64,000 bases of DNA from the NCBI GenBank assembly GCA_032250735.1, contig JAVVEP010000005.1, positions 1-64,000 of the forward strand. The letters are read 5' to 3'. The position numbers were made by a program, and so were the translations under genes. Position 1 is the stretch's first letter. Each line of letters starts with the position of its first letter. The notes under the pieces were generated by a model. It was not told the origin of the DNA. It saw nothing but the letters and a program-made list of their open reading frames with translations, and did no database searches. The DNA is from Gammaproteobacteria bacterium (GTDB lineage: Bacteria; Pseudomonadota; Gammaproteobacteria; SZUA-152). Below, piece after piece: positions 10,394 through 31,336 of the stretch.

Positions 10394-12226
10394 ATGTGTG
10401 GAATCGTTGGGGCTGTTGCGGATAGGGATGTGGTGCCGATTCTGGTGGAAGGGCTGCGTCGGCTGGAATACCGGGGTTATGATTCGGCAGGTATTGCGGT
10501 GCTGGACGCCGGTGGCTGCCTGGCGCGGGTGCGCTCGATGGGCAAGGTCGCCGCCCTGGTGGAGTCTATGGCGGACACGCTGAAGGGCACGGTCGGCATT
10601 GCCCACACCCGCTGGGCGACACACGGTGTGCCCAGTCAGAACAACGCCCACCCGCACATCTGCCGCGACACCGTCTCCGTGGTGCACAACGGCATCATCG
10701 AAAACCACGAAAAATTGCGCGCCGCACAGATCGCGGCCGGACACCGCTTTACCTCGGAGACCGACACCGAGGTCGTGGTCCATCTGCTGCATGACAATCA
10801 CGTGGATCAGGCCAAGGATCTGCTGGTCGCCGTGCAGGATACCGTCGCCGATCTTGAAGGTGCCTACGCCCTGGGCGTGATCAGCACCAGGGAGCCGGGG
10901 AGAATGATTGCCGCACGCCGGGGCAGTCCGCTGGTGGTCGGCGTCGGCATCGGTGAGTATTTCATCGCCTCGGATGCCGCGGCGCTGTTGCCGGTGACCC
11001 AACGCTTCATCTTTCTGCAGGAGGGCGACATTGCCGATATCCGGCGCAGTGGTCTGGTGATCTATGATGCGCAGGGCGCGGTGGTGGAGCGGCCAATAAA
11101 AGAGAGTGAGCTGTCGGCCGATGCGGTCGAGCGTGGCGAATATCGTCACTACATGCTGAAGGAAATCTACGAACAGCCGCGCGCCATTGCCGACACCCTG
11201 GAGGGCAGGATCAGTAACGGCCGGGTGCTCGATCAGGCCTTTGGCACCCGCGCCGCGGAAATCTTCGACACGGTGCAGGGCGTGCACATCATCGCCTGCG
11301 GCACCAGTTATCACGCGGGGCTGATTGGCCGCCACTGGCTGGAATCGATCGCCGGTGTTCCCTGTAGCGTGGAGGTGGCCAGCGAGTTTCGTTACCGCAA
11401 GCCGGTGGTGCGCAAGAATTCCCTGATCATCACCCTCTCGCAATCCGGCGAAACCGCCGACACCCTGGCCGGATTGCTGGAGGCCAGGCGACTGGGATTT
11501 GGCCACTCACTGTCGATCTGCAATGTGCCCGAGAGCTCACTGGTGCGCGAGTCGGATCTGGTGCTGCTGACCCGCGCCGGGCCGGAAATCGGCGTCGCCT
11601 CCACCAAGGCCTTCACCACCCAGCTGGTCGCATTGATGCTGCTGGTGATCGTACTGGGCCGCCGCCACGGCATGACAGCGGAAAACGAGGCCCGTCTGGT
11701 AGCCGAGCTGGAGAAGCTGCCGGCGGAGATCGACAGGGTGCTGAAGCTGGATGAACCCATTCGGCAGATCGCCGAACAGTTCGCCGATAAACATAACGCC
11801 CTGTTTCTCGGCCGCGGCGCACAGTACCCGGTGGCCATGGAGGGCGCACTCAAACTGAAAGAGATTTCCTACATCCATGCCGAGGCCTATCCCGCGGGTG
11901 AACTGAAGCACGGCCCACTGGCCCTGGTGGACGAAAGCATGCCCATCATCGCAGTAGCGCCTAACAATGAGTTGCTGGAAAAACTGAAATCCAACCTACA
12001 GGAAGTGCGCGCACGCGGCGGCAAGCTACTGGTGTTCGCCGACATGCACTCGCAACTAAAAGAAGAAGAGGGCCTGCAGGTACTGAATGTCGCCCCCGTG
12101 GACGACGCCATATCCCCCGTGGTCTACACCATCCCCCTGCAACTGCTGGCCTATTACGTCGCCGTGCTCAAAGGCACCGATGTCGATCAGCCGCGTAACC
12201 TCGCAAAATCGGTGACGGTGGAATAA
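10394..12226 (+). CDS. glmS: Glutamine-fructose-6-phosphate aminotransferase (isomerising)
   Basis: GlmS (610 residues) makes glucosamine-6-phosphate from fructose-6-phosphate and glutamine. Cys2 of MCGIVGAV is the glutaminase nucleophile after removal of Met1, so the start is secure. Two SIS isomerase domains follow (CGTSYHAG, ITLSQSGETADT, STKAFTTQL), and the C-terminus ends PRNLAKSVTVE, the usual GlmS tail. The last codons form the attTn7 recognition region. The 95-bp gap from glmU suggests an operon. Confidence 0.98.
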   Translation: MCGIVGAVADRDVVPILVEGLRRLEYRGYDSAGIAVLDAGGCLARVRSMGKVAALVESMADTLKGTVGIAHTRWATHGVPSQNNAHPHICRDTVSVVHNGIIENHEKLRAAQIAAGHRFTSETDTEVVVHLLHDNHVDQAKDLLVAVQDTVADLEGAYALGVISTREPGRMIAARRGSPLVVGVGIGEYFIASDAAALLPVTQRFIFLQEGDIADIRRSGLVIYDAQGAVVERPIKESELSADAVERGEYRHYMLKEIYEQPRAIADTLEGRISNGRVLDQAFGTRAAEIFDTVQGVHIIACGTSYHAGLIGRHWLESIAGVPCSVEVASEFRYRKPVVRKNSLIITLSQSGETADTLAGLLEARRLGFGHSLSICNVPESSLVRESDLVLLTRAGPEIGVASTKAFTTQLVALMLLVIVLGRRHGMTAENEARLVAELEKLPAEIDRVLKLDEPIRQIAEQFADKHNALFLGRGAQYPVAMEGALKLKEISYIHAEAYPAGELKHGPLALVDESMPIIAVAPNNELLEKLKSNLQEVRARGGKLLVFADMHSQLKEEEGLQVLNVAPVDDAISPVVYTIPLQLLAYYVAVLKGTDVDQPRNLAKSVTVE

Positions 12227-12255
12227 CTGTCGCGATTGTGGGAAGTAATGTTCGC
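12180..12255 (+). other. attTn7-type site at the glmS 3' end
   Basis: The final codons of glmS, encoding AKSVTVE, are the highly conserved DNA that TnsD-type targeting proteins recognise in Tn7 relatives. Insertions occur a few tens of bases past the stop (12224-12226). Here the sequence beyond the stop changes to AT-richer accessory DNA, as expected for an occupied or once-occupied site. No tns genes are in the window. Confidence 0.6.
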
Positions 12256-12290
12256 AAGTAATAAAGTCTGTCGGGTAGGTTTGAAGTCTG
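12237..12290 (+). mobile_element. Possible end of a Tn7-like element (remnant)
   Basis: Eleven bases past the glmS stop stands TGTGGG, the terminal sequence of Tn7. It is followed by AATAAAGTCTGTCGGG and, 20 bases on, GAAGTCTGTCGAG. The repeated (A/G)AAGTCTGTCG word resembles TnsB-type binding repeats; the left end of Tn7 contains AATAAAGTCT. No matching second end (CCCACA with the same repeats) was found at the far side of the island, so this is a remnant or a chance likeness. Confidence 0.35.
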
Positions 12291-12412
12291 TCGAGAAATG
12301 GGGGCGATTCACACCGTCTTTTACACTCGGATAAATTTCCTTATCAAATTGCCTCCCTGTAAAATTTAGTACTTCCAGATTTTCTGCCTGCATGGAAATT
12401 CCTCACCGTTAT

Positions 12413-12779
12413 TTATCTACCGAATAGAGGAAGAGACTTGGGAGTCGAGGCATCCATCGCCAAGTGAACCAAATAGGCGCCACCAATAACGAGCCCTAAT
12501 TTCCGAGCCAATTGGCGGCCCTCATCTTCAGGCTGCCACTTCCATAGGCTATACAAGCCATAACCCAGCAACACTGCAAAACCAACGCTATGAAATAATT
12601 GGCGATGATTGGGATGAAAAGCTGGCTCCAGGATGTCAGGCAAGGTACCGCAGGCAGCTGCAAGAGATGCGTTTACTACGGGTTCAGCGGTATTTGCGCC
12701 TTGTTTTTGTTCCGCGTAGCAGGAGATCCCCCCCCACAACGAGGGCAGCTCCAAGCCGATGTGTTGCTGCATTAGGCAT
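12413..12779 (-). pseudogene. YdjM/DUF457-like membrane-bound metal-dependent hydrolase, frameshifted at a G-run
   Basis: A start at 12779 reads MPNAATHRLGAALVVGG, a typical family N-terminus, but the frame breaks at a run of eight Gs (12728-12735 on this strand). With seven Gs the frame joins the ORF that continues ISCYAEQKQG... to the end, giving about 121 residues. The rest shows PDILEP, HPNHRQLFHSVGF and HLAMDASTPKSLPLFG, matching the metal-ligand histidines and DxxTPKGxPLL tail of the YdjM/YbcI-like inner-membrane family, plus two membrane helices. The ATG is one base after the stop of the upstream small gene. The shift may be real decay, phase variation or a sequencing error. Confidence 0.7.
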
Positions 12780-12780
12780 G

Positions 12781-12954
12781 TTATTTCTCCTTTCTGACGC
12801 CCTTGAAGGGGTTGCTGTCAGCTTTCTGGTCTATAAATCGACCGGTTGTAGTATCCCGCTTGACCCAATGGTCATTCTGGGGGTTATATGTCTGTGATCG
12901 GCCTCGGACTGCACCATTTCGTCGTCCGTCGCCTTTAGGTGGGTTGGTAGCCAT
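12781..12954 (-). CDS. Small conserved basic protein (57 aa) of unknown function
   Basis: This 57-residue frame begins MATNPPKGDGRRNGAV and ends SNPFKGVRKEK. I recognise it as a small conserved protein found in many bacteria as a hypothetical, rich in Arg, Lys, Asn and Gly, with no hydrophobic segment. A strong ribosome-binding site (AGGAGGTT) sits 7 bases before the ATG. Its stop is one base from the next gene's ATG, so it is coupled to the YdjM-like gene. It reads away from the XRE-ImmA operon and shares its promoter region. No function is known to me. Confidence 0.8.
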   Translation of the reverse strand: MATNPPKGDGRRNGAVRGRSQTYNPQNDHWVKRDTTTGRFIDQKADSNPFKGVRKEK

Positions 12955-13000
12955 AAGTTCTAACCTCCTGATCCATAAAAATATTTGATCAAAATTAGGC

Positions 13001-13066
13001 TTGCTACAATGCTAGCCATTAACTATAGTTTACACAATTATAAGAAATGATCAAGTTTTGTAAACT
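13001..13066 (+). promoter_or_regulatory. Promoter and operator-like inverted repeat of the XRE-ImmA operon
   Basis: TTGCTA (13001-13006) and TATAGT (13024-13029) have a 17-base spacer. AGTTTACA (13027-13034) is repeated inverted as TGTAAACT (13059-13066), so the left arm overlaps the -10 and the right arm ends 11 bases before the start codon. This is the layout expected for autorepression by the XRE protein encoded next. The same intergenic region must also drive the leftward small-protein gene. Confidence 0.6.
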
Positions 13067-13077
13067 GGAGTGAGACC

Positions 13078-14148
13078 ATGATTGGAGAACGAATACAGCA
13101 GGCGCGTAAAGCGTCAGGCTTATCCCTGCGTGCATTGGCCGAAAAGGCTGGTGTGTCTGCCATGGCAATATCCAAGTACGAAAACAACAAGTCCACCCCC
13201 TCATCCGGGGTGATGCTGGCCCTGGCTAAGGCTTTGCAGGTACGGACTGAGTACTTTTTACGTCGCGCTAGAGTAGAGCTACGTGAGGTTGAGTATCGTA
13301 AACATGTCAGCTTACCGAAAAAGGTACTCGATCAGATTGAAGGTGATGTTATTGAGCAAATTGAACGGTTCATTGAGCTTGAAGAGCTACTTCCAGTAAA
13401 TCCTATACAGGTCTTCAAGTTGCCAAAGAGCTTGCCTAAGCAAATTGAGGATTACGAGAGAATTGAATCCATCGTGCTCGAAATCCGAAAAGCATGGGGG
13501 CTTGGTAATAATCCAATACCTGATTTGATTGATACTTTGGAAGAGCGCGGTATCAAAGTTTTTCAGTCAATTGCTTTACATGACGAAAAATTTGATGGTT
13601 TGGCGGCCACCGTCAACAGTACTCCAGTAATTGTTGTTGGAAGAGATTGGCCTGGTGATCGGCAACGTTTTACTTTGGCTCACGAACTTGGTCATCTTGT
13701 TCTTAAGAACCGATTAGCCGAGGGTTTAGATGAAGAAAAAGCAGCTAATCGGTTTGCTGGCGCATTCCTGGTACCCGCTGCCGAGGCAATAAAAGAACTA
13801 GGTAGTACTAGAAGCTGGTTAGAACCAGTCGAGCTATGTGTTCTTAAACAAACTTATGGGCTGAGCATGCGTGGCTGGATTTATCGTGCCAGCGATTTAA
13901 ATATACTCAATAAAGCAGCTTCAAAAAAAATGTGGGACTATTTCCGATCCCGCAACTGGATAAAAAAAGAACCTGGAAAACAATATCCAGCAGAAAAGCC
14001 CAAACTATTCACCCAACTGGTCTTCCATGCATATGGCGAAGAGTTAGTTAGTGATTCAAAGGCTGCTGAACTAATGGGTATGTCGCTCGTTGATTTCCGA
14101 AAGATGAGAAATGTGGGGAGCTGTGAGCAAGACATTACTGATCAGTGA
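13078..14148 (+). CDS. XRE-family regulator fused to ImmA/IrrE (M78) metallopeptidase
   Basis: The 356-residue protein has an N-terminal XRE helix-turn-helix (residues 1-60, with LRALAEKAGVSAMAISKYEN) and an ImmA/IrrE zinc-peptidase domain. The catalytic motif HELGH is at residues 202-206, and EKAANRFAGAFLVP (from about 220) supplies the third ligand. Known members cleave a repressor or partner to derepress mobile-element or stress genes, and XRE-COG2856 proteins have been proposed as antitoxin components paired with PIN proteins. The downstream PIN gene overlaps its 3' end, which supports that pairing here. Its DNA is AT-richer than the flanking core genes. Confidence 0.92.
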   Translation: MIGERIQQARKASGLSLRALAEKAGVSAMAISKYENNKSTPSSGVMLALAKALQVRTEYFLRRARVELREVEYRKHVSLPKKVLDQIEGDVIEQIERFIELEELLPVNPIQVFKLPKSLPKQIEDYERIESIVLEIRKAWGLGNNPIPDLIDTLEERGIKVFQSIALHDEKFDGLAATVNSTPVIVVGRDWPGDRQRFTLAHELGHLVLKNRLAEGLDEEKAANRFAGAFLVPAAEAIKELGSTRSWLEPVELCVLKQTYGLSMRGWIYRASDLNILNKAASKKMWDYFRSRNWIKKEPGKQYPAEKPKLFTQLVFHAYGEELVSDSKAAELMGMSLVDFRKMRNVGSCEQDITDQ

Positions 14149-14626
14149 TGCAAATATCCTGATTGATATGGATGCAGGTGGGCTACTTGAGCCCATGTTT
14201 TCACTGGAATATACGTTTGCTACGCCTGATATGCTTTATCAAGAAGAATTAGCAGAACTTCATCCGCACTTGCTTGATATGGGGCTTAAAGCGATGGAAT
14301 TATCTGAGGACACAGTGCAACAACTTGTAGAGTTCAGCCAAACTTATGGCCATACAGGGGTCAGTAGTTATGACCTGGCCTCAATGGGGCTGGCACAACA
14401 GGAACAGGCACCATTGTTAACGGGCGATAGGAAACTACATCAAGTCTGTATCCAGGAAAATGTCGAAGTCCACGGAAGCTTATGGCTGGTTAATGAATTA
14501 CACAGCACAAAAATCGTCAGCTTTGATGAAATTGAACTGGCTTATGAGAGAATGAAAGCAGATGGCAGTCGCCTGCCCTGGGATGAAGTCAAAAACCAGT
14601 TAAAACGATTTAGGAAAAAAAAGTAA
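14123..14626 (+). CDS. PIN-domain protein, probable toxin nuclease of the XRE-ImmA pair
   Basis: The protein (167 residues from GTG 14123; an ATG at 14111 would add four) begins SKTLLISDANILIDM, the PIN strand and first acidic residue. VSSYDLASMGLA and PLLTGDRKLH carry the later conserved acids. PIN proteins are Mg2+-dependent RNases and common type II toxins. GTG 14123 is favoured because GGGGAG lies directly before it. The gene overlaps the ImmA gene by 26 bases, so the two are translationally coupled. Whether it is toxic is inferred from the family and context. Confidence 0.8.
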   Translation: MSKTLLISDANILIDMDAGGLLEPMFSLEYTFATPDMLYQEELAELHPHLLDMGLKAMELSEDTVQQLVEFSQTYGHTGVSSYDLASMGLAQQEQAPLLTGDRKLHQVCIQENVEVHGSLWLVNELHSTKIVSFDEIELAYERMKADGSRLPWDEVKNQLKRFRKKK

Positions 14627-14629
14627 TTT

Positions 14630-14926
14630 ATGAGTAAAAGAACGAAAAAAGATTTATTGCCTCTGATATCCCGCACACGCTTGTTGGAGCTAGCGGGAAA
14701 TTACGACGTTTCAGGCCTTAGCAGTAAATCCAAAGGTGATATCGTACAGGCCATGGTCCAATATCGAAAAATTGCACTGGCAGATATGCTTGAAACATTG
14801 AAGCGTGACGAACTGAAGGATCTGTGCAAAAAATTATCACTGGATGATTCAGGTCGTGAAAAAGGTGTACTCATAGAACGCCTGGTAAATGGAAAACAAG
14901 TGGCCTCGATTGCGGAAGAGCGTTAA
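14630..14926 (+). CDS. SAP-like small protein, third gene of the XRE-ImmA-PIN operon
   Basis: The 98-residue, lysine-rich protein contains two SAP-like helical units: TRLLELAGNYDVSGLSSKSK with DIVQAMV, and LKRDELKDLCKKLSLDDSGR with LIERLV. The second resembles the small modules appended to some type I restriction methylases. SAP units usually bind DNA. It starts three bases after the PIN stop, so it belongs to the operon. Its role in the module is unknown. Its TAA stop is part of a REP-type repeat. Confidence 0.7.
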   Translation: MSKRTKKDLLPLISRTRLLELAGNYDVSGLSSKSKGDIVQAMVQYRKIALADMLETLKRDELKDLCKKLSLDDSGREKGVLIERLVNGKQVASIAEER

Positions 14927-14963
14927 AGGGGTCAGCAGCGTTAAAGGGGTCAGAGCCCTTTAA
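14923..14963. repeat. REP-type palindrome, with a truncated tandem copy
   Basis: The palindrome at 14941-14963 has arms TTAAAGGG and CCCTTTAA around a TCAGA loop. A partial copy (14923-14937) precedes it and contains the stop codon of the SAP-like gene. Similar copies are at 29833, 31242, 35981 and, degenerate, 37491. This motif is familiar from genomes with REP-associated (RAYT) transposases. The rest of the gap to 15055 holds nothing recognised. Confidence 0.75.
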
Positions 14964-15054
14964 GCCAGATTAGTTACATCTGCCCAGCAATTTTTCAGTA
15001 TCGAATATTTATACTCGGATCAGACTGAAATATTGATCCGCAAAACGCAGCCTT

Positions 15055-15405
15055 TCAGGTTTCCGCGACGTCCCGGTCGATCAATCGCAGTTCCCCCTGC
15101 TGTACCTCAAGCGTGAGGGCGCGCAGCCGTTGTCCCAGGCAGGGACCCCATTCGCAGAGTCCGTTTTCAATCCTGAACAGTGCGCCATGGGTGGCGCACT
15201 GGATGCGTTGTGCGGTGATATCGAGAAACTGGTCGGGTTGCCAGTTGAGTGTGACGCCGGTATGCGGGCAGCTGTTTTCGTAGGCGTAAAAGTTGTCGTG
15301 GTGACGCACGACAAACAGGGCAAGGGGCCTGTGGTCGATGGTCAGCGTGTAGGCCTTGCCGGCGCCTTCCTCAATCTCCGCAGCACGGCCCAGGGTGTAA
15401 TGCAT
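15055..15405 (-). CDS. Rieske [2Fe-2S] ferredoxin-like protein
   Basis: This 116-residue stand-alone Rieske domain has the two cluster-binding boxes CPHTG and CATHGALF, giving the Cys-X-His and Cys-X2-His ligands. There is no signal peptide, so it is probably a cytoplasmic electron carrier for an oxygenase or nitrite-reductase-type enzyme; the partner is not in the window. It lies 13 bases after yqgE on the same strand and is probably co-transcribed with it. Confidence 0.88.
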   Translation of the reverse strand: MHYTLGRAAEIEEGAGKAYTLTIDHRPLALFVVRHHDNFYAYENSCPHTGVTLNWQPDQFLDITAQRIQCATHGALFRIENGLCEWGPCLGQRLRALTLEVQQGELRLIDRDVAET

Positions 15406-29832: not shown

Positions 29833-29927
29833 TTAAGGGGTCAGAGCCCTTCAATAGAGAAAAAAGGGTGGTCCTGATTATTGAGAGTGGTCAGATCGTG
29901 AAGGTGGAGTAACTATGCCTGGCAATT
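29833..29927. repeat. ~95-bp direct repeat, copy 1 (REP-type start)
   Basis: It begins TTAAGGGGTCAGAGCCC and continues through AATAGAGAA and GTGAAGGTGGAGTAACTATGC to CAATT. It matches 31242-31336 over its whole length, with scattered mismatches. The pair encloses two unknown genes and an attC-like site. Confidence 0.85.
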
Positions 29928-31229: not shown

Positions 31230-31336
31230 GGGGTCACGGGCTTAAGGGGTCAGAGCCCTTTAATAGAGAATAAAAGGGTGATCCTTATTGTTGAGGGTGG
31301 TCATGTCGTGAAGGTGGAGTAACTATGCACGGCAAT
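31225..31336. repeat. ~95-bp direct repeat, copy 2, with duplicated gene-end word
   Basis: The end of the preceding gene, CGGGCTTAAGGGGTCA, occurs twice in tandem (from 31222 and 31238). It then runs into the full repeat from 31242, ending CAATT at about 31336 as in copy 1. The palindrome arms are TTAAGGG and CCCTTTAA. After it, 31337-31395 is a GC-rich, partly palindromic stretch without a gene. Confidence 0.8.

What the first reader, a model, noticed from the sequence alone, without database searches (positions are those of the whole stretch)
12413..14926. Divergent five-gene module at the glmS attachment site: small basic protein and YdjM-like membrane protein opposite XRE-ImmA, PIN and SAP-like genes
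Seen: two tightly coupled gene groups read outward from one 123-bp intergenic region with a perfect AGTTTACA/TGTAAACT inverted repeat across the rightward promoter. In each group the genes overlap or lie 1-3 bases apart. Known: XRE-ImmA proteins are sensors that cleave a partner, PIN proteins are toxin RNases, SAP units bind DNA, and the glmS 3' end is a hotspot for mobile and defence genes. Inferred: the two groups may form one system, with a protease-regulated nuclease and a membrane effector. I know of no described system with this composition.
Basis: partly seen in the sequence, partly recalled or inferred. Interest (0 to 1): 0.75.

Follow-up and report, generated by a model that had tools for sequence, protein, structure and literature searches.

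The report
Two divergent operons sharing one switch
Next to a housekeeping gene sits a likely virus-defence locus in which a known type of toxin switch faces, across a shared control site, a tiny and very widespread protein paired with a predicted membrane-lipid enzyme; the parts are known or catalogued, but their recurring arrangement appears undescribed.

Summary
The five ORFs, the 123-bp gap and the inverted repeat are real. Rightward: XRE-ImmA plus PIN, a toxin-antitoxin pair of the RosmerTA kind. Leftward: a 57-aa protein (PADLOC candidate PDC-S38, 72-84% identical in 41 aligned genome loci of many phyla) plus a YdjM-like protein, predicted phospholipase. The SAP gene is not conserved and should be dropped.

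The divergent four-gene arrangement recurs in three genomes (window included) of two classes; 57-aa facing XRE-ImmA/PIN also occurs in two other phyla. It is optional: 3 of 22 XRE-ImmA loci of a class-wide draw have the 57-aa gene, and a same-genus genome has XRE-ImmA/PIN alone after glmS. The repeat is the cognate XRE-ImmA operator (17 of 22 loci), overlapping promoter-like sites in both directions here; two sister relatives carry a second copy at the 57-aa promoter. In the class draw, 57-aa/YdjM without XRE-ImmA faces a WYL regulator (4 of 4).

Best reading: XRE-ImmA is antitoxin for PIN and a protease-switched controller of the adjacent operon, like CapH/CapP or BrxR/CapW. Regulation and defence are inferred, not shown. 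The window's YdjM frame is broken at a run of eight G. New variant of a known kind; interest 0.56.

The parts
12413..12772 (-). YdjM-like protein (PF04307), predicted phospholipase-fold effector; the ORF as drawn lacks the conserved N-terminus, which lies in another frame next to the 57-aa stop
   Evidence: Pfam 4.9e-09; alignment of 7 relatives with invariant H7, D48, H58, H63, H105, D109; three-frame view; family proposed as phospholipase toxin in PMC8557891 (passages)
12728..12735 (.). run of eight G (coding strand) at which the YdjM frame is broken
   Evidence: only G/C run of 8 or more in the window
12781..12954 (-). 57-aa basic protein, PADLOC PDC-S38 / phrog_12550, first gene of the leftward operon
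13027..13066 (.). operator: inverted repeat with half-sites GTTTACA / TGTAAAC, start to start 31 bp
   Evidence: conserved upstream of XRE-ImmA
13037..13064 (-). leftward promoter-like site TTTACA-16-TATAAT; its -35 lies in the right arm
   Evidence: 11 of 12, best in region; promoter-like sites overall not above the shuffled number
13001..13029 (+). rightward promoter-like site TTGCTA-17-TATAGT; its -10 overlaps the left arm
   Evidence: 9 of 12; similar site at the same place in G055 and L129
13078..14148 (+). XRE-ImmA fusion (HTH_3 + Peptidase_M78, HELGH), RmrA-like antitoxin and putative controller
   Evidence: Pfam 1.4e-15 and 1.4e-14; PADLOC RmrA 2.2e-55; HEXXH kept in 28 of 28 chosen sequences, window included
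14111..14626 (+). PIN-domain RNase toxin
   Evidence: PIN PF01850 E 0.001, score 20.1 under the cut-off 23.6; D13, E46, D88, D106 kept in 93-100% of 28 chosen sequences; next to XRE-ImmA in 20 of 22 loci, 4 of them partial matches
14630..14926 (+). SAP-domain ORF, probably a passenger; its stop codon lies inside a short repeat
   Evidence: SAP PF02037 7.2e-08; not conserved; repeat

Best explanation
The locus is two modules under one switch. XRE-ImmA is the antitoxin of the PIN RNase and represses its own promoter through the GTTTACA-N24-TGTAAAC operator. Because the operator also covers the leftward promoter, XRE-ImmA holds down the divergent 57-aa/YdjM operon. A signal, by analogy single-stranded DNA made during phage infection or DNA damage, turns on the ImmA protease; XRE is cleaved, the PIN RNase is freed and both operons are derepressed, so that the 57-aa protein and the YdjM enzyme, a predicted phospholipase acting on the membrane, are made as a second arm. 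The 57-aa protein is not specific to YdjM: it leads or accompanies many regulated defence operons. Shown by sequence: composition, arrangement, operator conservation, recurrence, a WYL regulator in the same place at other 57-aa/YdjM loci. Inferred: repression, cleavage, the signal, enzyme action, phage defence. In the assembled sequence of this genome the YdjM arm is frame-broken, so the leftward effector may be off or lost here.
For: Four-gene divergent arrangement in the window, G055 (XRE 71%, PIN 49%) and G389, another class (XRE 53%, YdjM 53%). 57-aa gene facing XRE-ImmA/PIN in G267, L066, L071, L112, L129 (Pseudomonadota), L100 (Bacteroidota) and L124 (Thermodesulfobacteriota), and one ORF away in L105 (Verrucomicrobiota). 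Operator in 17 of 22 class-draw loci and 8 of 10 with-57 gaps. The sister loci L066 and L071 have a second full operator whose arm overlaps the -10 of the 57-aa promoter-like site by two bases and which runs to the 57-aa start. XRE, ImmA or WYL genes lie on the 5' side of the 57-aa gene (17 of 78, 18 of 78, 10 of 74, 8 of 71 at -1 to -4) and not at +1 to +4 (0 of 292); 4 of 60 at +5. In the 9 strong 57-aa loci of the class draw, 3 face XRE-ImmA/PIN and 5 a WYL protein. [quoted passage not shown]
Against: The coupling is optional: 57-aa present at 3 of 22 XRE-ImmA loci, and the state changed at least 5 times on the tree. The operator occurs equally without the 57-aa gene, so its presence alone shows autoregulation only. 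A leftward promoter-like site touching the operator scores well in the window, L066 and L071, weakly in G055, and is not found in G267, G389, L129 or L112; L100 and L124 have such sites but no operator of the consensus form. Promoter-like sites in the window region are not above the shuffled number. The 57-aa/YdjM part (GC 0.518) and the XRE/PIN part (0.44-0.45) differ in composition, as for separate origins. YdjM is frame-broken in the window and split in G055. 43 of 78 57-aa loci show no such regulator within three genes upstream.
Confidence: 0.57

Rival explanations
1. Two independent defence modules sit side by side. XRE-ImmA/PIN is a self-contained RosmerTA-type pair with its own operator; 57-aa/YdjM has its own regulation and only shares the site.
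For: Each half is mostly found without the other. Same genus, same site, XRE-ImmA/PIN alone after glmS (G378). Different GC of the halves. On three plasmid loci read, XRE-ImmA/PIN is followed by type I restriction genes.
Against: Divergent across one short gap in each adjacent case, with the regulator on the 5' side of the 57-aa gene; a second operator at the 57-aa promoter in L066 and L071. Chance of adjacency, even granting one shared island of 30 genes (an assumption), about 1e-4 without the window.
Confidence: 0.28
2. 57-aa/YdjM is itself a toxin-antitoxin pair, the 57-aa protein neutralising YdjM, facing a second toxin-antitoxin pair.
For: Start-stop coupling of the two genes in several relatives; small basic first gene; YdjM relatives proposed as phospholipase toxins (PMC8557891, passages).
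Against: The same 57-aa protein leads operons with unrelated partners: multiubiquitin/E1, DUF2188, and by eye SIR2-like/TIR and HsdM-like, and stands beside DUF1883 genes; in a Staphylococcus phage it lies on the strand opposite to its neighbours. In G077 and G334 two other genes lie between it and YdjM. One WYL-YdjM operon (L254) shows no 57-aa gene in the 6.4 kb held.
Confidence: 0.1
3. The leftward operon is a decaying remnant and only XRE-ImmA/PIN works in this genome.
For: YdjM frame broken at a G8 run and split in G055; G267 keeps 57-aa and XRE-ImmA/PIN but no YdjM was found.
Against: 57-aa reading frame intact and strongly conserved; the break is at the only long G run of the window, where a sequencing error or phase variation is as likely; intact YdjM in G389 and six other loci.
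Confidence: 0.05

Closest known systems
RosmerTA (RmrA ImmA-domain antitoxin + varied RmrT toxin); NetFlax node D25 with PIN-like partners (PMC10440598, passages)
   Same: XRE-ImmA antitoxin next to a toxin; RmrA models match at 2.2e-55 over residues 3-333 of 356; PIN-like partners of D25 are reported
   Different: No PADLOC RmrT model matches this PIN protein; here a divergent second operon shares the operator
COG2856-Xre fusion in operons with PIN or RelE toxins: predicted three-component toxin-antitoxin (PMC2701414, passages); Rv2515c/Rv2514c tested as antitoxin/toxin (PMC6504116, passages)
   Same: Fused XRE-protease gene followed by a toxin gene
   Different: No linked 57-aa/YdjM operon or operator is mentioned in the passages read
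CapH+CapP, CapW/BrxR and CapK+CapS controllers of adjacent immune operons (PMC13373217 passages and Discussion, PMC9122601 passages)
   Same: Regulator 5' of an immune operon; inverted-repeat operator; WYL proteins take the same place at other 57-aa/YdjM loci
   Different: Here XRE and protease are one protein that also travels with its own PIN toxin
VapKSC (PMC13373217, passages and Discussion)
   Same: An immune-operon controller type joined to a PIN/VapC RNase toxin
   Different: Kinase/STAS based; described as standalone operons in the passages read
PDC-S38 (PADLOC phage defence candidate)
   Same: The 57-aa protein is a member by HMM, full length
   Different: By recall the 'S' marks a single-gene candidate; partner genes and the 5' regulator pattern are not in the record seen

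Membership tests
RosmerTA | ImmA-protease antitoxin RmrA | tested here: met
   14 RmrA models match, best 2.2e-55; HELGH present
RosmerTA | adjacent toxin RmrT | tested here: inconclusive
   PIN gene overlaps RmrA and is next to it in 20 of 22 loci, 4 of them partial matches, but no RmrT model matches it; toxins of the family are diverse
RosmerTA | toxicity neutralised by RmrA; phage defence | not testable with these tools
   needs bench work
VapC-like PIN toxin | acidic PIN active site | tested here: met
   D13, E46, D88, D106 in 93-100% of 28 chosen sequences; Pfam PIN E 0.001 but below the curated cut-off
CapH+CapP type controller | XRE repressor and ImmA protease as two genes | tested here: not met
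   fused in one 356-aa protein; capH and capP models match its two halves far less well than RmrA does (8.9e-13, 3.4e-12)
CapH+CapP type controller | operator on the promoter of the adjacent operon | tested here: inconclusive
   leftward promoter-like site overlaps the operator in the window and a second operator lies at the 57-aa promoter in L066, L071, but no such promoter is recognised in G267, G389, L129, L112
CapH+CapP type controller | ssDNA-activated cleavage | not testable with these tools
   inferred from relatives (PMC10904395, PMC13373217, passages)
PDC-S38 | HMM match over the whole 57 aa | tested here: met
   PDLC05010 1-57 of 57, 2.6e-33
YdjM (PF04307) | family HMM above gathering score; conserved H and D residues | tested here: met
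   36.4 bits over 29; invariant H and D in 7 relatives; H7 lies in the other frame in the window

The most novel reading that the evidence does not exclude
A toxin-antitoxin switch (XRE-ImmA/PIN) has been recruited as controller of a second, divergent effector operon, giving a two-stage suicide circuit (RNA cleavage, then membrane lipid attack) from one sensor; and the 57-aa protein is a widespread small licensing factor of damage-induced defence operons, placed just after whichever ImmA/XRE or WYL controller is in use, in at least six phyla (phyla read from the record titles).
Probability: 0.3. Interest if true: 0.8.

Novelty: new variant of a known kind. Interest (0 to 1): 0.56.

Why it matters
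It gives a testable rule for an uncharacterised but very conserved and widespread small protein: where an ImmA/XRE or WYL damage-type controller is near, it lies on the 5' side of the 57-aa gene (35 of 78 loci within three genes upstream, none at +1 to +4, 4 of 60 at +5). It also links a toxin-antitoxin family to transcriptional control of a neighbouring defence operon through an operator that can be recognised by pattern, so other loci can be found.

Tried and rejected
SAP gene as a component: rejected. glmS as a dedicated attachment site of the five-gene unit: not supported. Neither of the two other loci with the four-gene arrangement has glmS beside it (G389 shows only a 27% partial match about 8 kb away). 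Of 10 other genomes of the genus with a readable glmS 3' flank (up to 1500 nt; an eleventh, G373, ends inside the gene) only G378 matches the window block there, by XRE-ImmA/PIN alone. RNA family: none in 12200-15100 at E up to 1. Structure of the 57-aa protein: four strands in the best model, mean pLDDT 78.2 (the five models 78.2 to 58.7), no PDB match with E under 0.001; sequence search of PDB gave only E 0.062 to a designed protein. YdjM model: mean pLDDT 57.9 from 3 sequences, too poor to search. Viral contigs: 2 XRE-ImmA relatives and 1 YdjM relative. Papers: the listings for RmrA/RmrT, PDC-S38, YdjM, RosmerTA and Bub showed no title or abstract describing this arrangement; the library lacks most subscription papers.

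Biases and corrections. The 80 genome loci are the best 80 of at least 585 relatives, not a random draw, and rest on one peptide pattern at the C-terminus. The XRE, ImmA and WYL profiles were built mostly from neighbours seen upstream; one seed of the XRE profile was a wrong protein (L059 at -1), which added two false hits at -1. One search repeats the count without it (17 of 78 instead of 19, 35 of 78 instead of 36); one search used the older profile. The unsupervised clustering shows the same one-sidedness (cluster 0: 31 loci, all upstream; cluster 1: 18 loci, two of 19 members downstream, at +5). Two duplicate loci (L072, L121) were dropped. WYL identity was checked by Pfam for L192 and L127 only; WYL at L193, L194, L195 and L197 rests on a profile that they helped to seed; G580, G744 and G595 were not seeds. 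Gene calls in related loci come from a simple longest-ORF caller. The tree mixes rows found through either query and left out L072, L212, L223 and L255. The Fisher test and the 6.5e-7 figure include the window itself. An earlier count gave the operator count as 16 of 22; recounted it is 17.
Full report
Observation. The window is contig 5 of a 3.43-Mb genome in 61 contigs. The block between glmS and the next gene is low in GC (0.449 against 0.566 for the window and 0.62 for glmS) and looks acquired; its two halves differ (57-aa/YdjM 0.518, XRE 0.446, PIN 0.436, SAP 0.428).

Families. XRE-ImmA: HTH_3 and Peptidase_M78, PADLOC RmrA 2.2e-55, phrog_2439 2.2e-69. PIN: PF01850 at 0.001, below the curated cut-off, but the acidic residues D13, E46, D88 and D106 are kept in 93-100% of 28 chosen sequences (loci with partial PIN matches were not among them), and HEXXH in 28 of 28 XRE-ImmA sequences, window included. 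57 aa: PADLOC PDC-S38 2.6e-33, phrog_12550. YdjM: PF04307; PMC8557891 (passages) proposes the family as phospholipases related to alpha toxin, with S1-P1 nuclease and HET-C domains in the same alignment. SAP: PF02037.

Two independent distributions. From the XRE side, 22 of 369 genomes of the class have a match at E up to 1e-50. PIN is next to it in 20 of 22 (4 partial, some at contig ends) and the 57-aa gene in 3 of 22 (G000, G055, G267), within 1.5 kb on either side; one locus holds only 105 nt upstream. In a phylum draw it is 7 of 398, with the 57-aa gene in 2 (G000, G389). From the 57-aa side, 15 of 369 genomes match at E up to 0.001, 9 of them strongly (1.6e-22 or better). Of those 9, 6 have YdjM nearby and 3 have XRE-ImmA/PIN. 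In a second draw 14 of 378 match, 11 strongly. None of 14 control genomes has the 57-aa protein. So each half lives mostly without the other.

But they are joined too often for chance. At genome level in the class draw the odds ratio is 9.0, p 0.012, window included. Adjacency in 3 of 9, assuming generously that both always lie in one island of 30 genes, has a probability of 6.5e-7, or 1e-4 with the window left out (2 of 8). The full divergent four-gene arrangement is in the window, G055 and G389. 57-aa facing XRE-ImmA/PIN, with other or no downstream partners, is in G267, L129, L066, L071 and its second copy L072, L112, L100 and L124; in L105 it lies one predicted ORF away. That is 8 of the 80 loci. 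In a 38-row tree of XRE-ImmA the with-57 label (11 rows) needs 6 changes against 9.6 for shuffled labels (4 of 500 as low), at least 5 forced by well-supported branches. The state is clustered but repeatedly gained or lost. In G378, same genus, XRE-ImmA (71%) and PIN (52%) stand alone right after glmS with an operator of the same form.

The operator. Half-sites are mostly 30-32 bp apart, start to start. In the window the left arm overlaps the -10 of a rightward promoter-like site and the right arm is the -35 of the leftward one, the best match in the region; but the scan's total of 6 sites is not above the shuffled 4.3. In L066 and L071, sister rows in the tree and so perhaps one event, there are two operators; the leftward promoter-like site (TTGACA, 17-18, TATGGT or TATAGT) starts inside one and ends on the edge of the other, which reaches the 57-aa start. 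L100 and L124 lack the consensus form though they have promoter-like sites both ways. A leftward site is weak in G055 and not recognised in G267, G389, L129 and L112.

The 57-aa protein and its regulators. It is 72-84% identical to the window's copy in 41 aligned genome loci, taken from the most similar ones, and 47-77% in 7 viral ones, with an invariant FKGVRKE end. In 78 loci, XRE, ImmA or WYL genes lie at -1, -2, -3, -4 in 17 of 78, 18 of 78, 10 of 74 and 8 of 71, at +1 to +4 in 0 of 292, and at +5 in 4 of 60; 35 of 78 have one within three genes upstream and 43 do not (which mends). They may be divergent or on the same strand (at -1: 12 of 40 minus-strand, 5 of 38 plus-strand genes). Downstream or neighbouring partners are unrelated to each other: YdjM; multiubiquitin plus ThiF/E1 plus DUF6527 (L071); SIR2-like and TIR, patatin-like and HsdM-like (read by eye); DUF1883-TIR (L126); DUF2188 (Clavibacter plasmid); YdjM with SAVED and nucleotidyltransferase (Vibrio gigantis plasmid). 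In the strong class-draw loci without XRE-ImmA/PIN a divergent WYL protein takes its place in 5 of 6. In the phylum draw 5 of 11 strong loci have such a regulator near (2 XRE-ImmA, 3 WYL), G629 has an XRE gene about 2.2 kb off, and five show none. Replacement of one controller type by another at the same place is the best indirect sign that the controller acts on the 57-aa operon.

YdjM break. Where YdjM directly follows the 57-aa gene it starts 0-2 nt after, or overlapping, the 57-aa stop; in G077 and G334 two small genes lie between. In the window the N-terminus, with the conserved histidine, and the rest of the protein are in different frames, parting at eight G. The ORF as drawn starts out of frame, so its first residues are not homologous to the family. 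Intact relatives exist. G055 is also split, at another place. Error, phase variation and decay cannot be told apart here.

Mechanism and rank. Known precedent makes a protease-switched repressor likely: CapP cleaves CapH when activated by ssDNA, and PprI binds and is activated by ssDNA (PMC13373217, PMC10904395; passages). NetFlax reports ImmA-domain antitoxins with PIN-like partners and RosmerTA as phage defence (PMC10440598, passages); TASmania tested Rv2515c/Rv2514c as antitoxin and toxin (PMC6504116, passages), Rv2515c being an Xre-COG2856 fusion (PMC2701414, passages); RipAB in pneumococcus is another Rosmer member (PMC12795458, passages). What is new here is the link: a toxin-antitoxin pair placed, with its operator, as the likely controller of a second operon, and the position rule for the 57-aa family. 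Function and regulation are untested.

Noticed in passing
window 14919-14954 (also 29834-29845 and 31243-31254): Short repeat AAAGGGGTCAGA: 4 matches in the window at up to 1 mismatch against 0.16 expected, and a 91% match on contig 24. The SAP stop codon lies inside the first copy. The two distant copies bracket two ORFs of 182 and 189 aa. It resembles REP-type repeats (recalled, not tested).
   Followed up: partly
window 12728-12735: Only G/C run of eight or more in 64 kb, inside the YdjM gene at the frame break; possible phase-variable tract.
   Followed up: partly
L192 4088-4610, L194 7461-8022: Two small uncharacterised proteins (87-100 aa and 82 aa, no Pfam hit for the L192 pair at E 0.01) lie between the 57-aa gene and YdjM in G077 and G334; by eye, relatives of the first also lie by the 57-aa gene in L130 and L096.
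   Followed up: no
L254 2048-3366: Viral contig with a WYL-like regulator overlapping a YdjM gene and no 57-aa gene found in the stretch held.
   Followed up: no
L006 4001-7593: Vibrio gigantis plasmid: 57-aa, YdjM, SAVED and nucleotidyltransferase genes in one row, so YdjM may serve as a CBASS-like effector.
   Followed up: no
L071 and L072: Dyella jiangningensis carries the 57-aa/XRE-ImmA/PIN/multiubiquitin-E1 locus with the same gene layout at two places of one chromosome.
   Followed up: no
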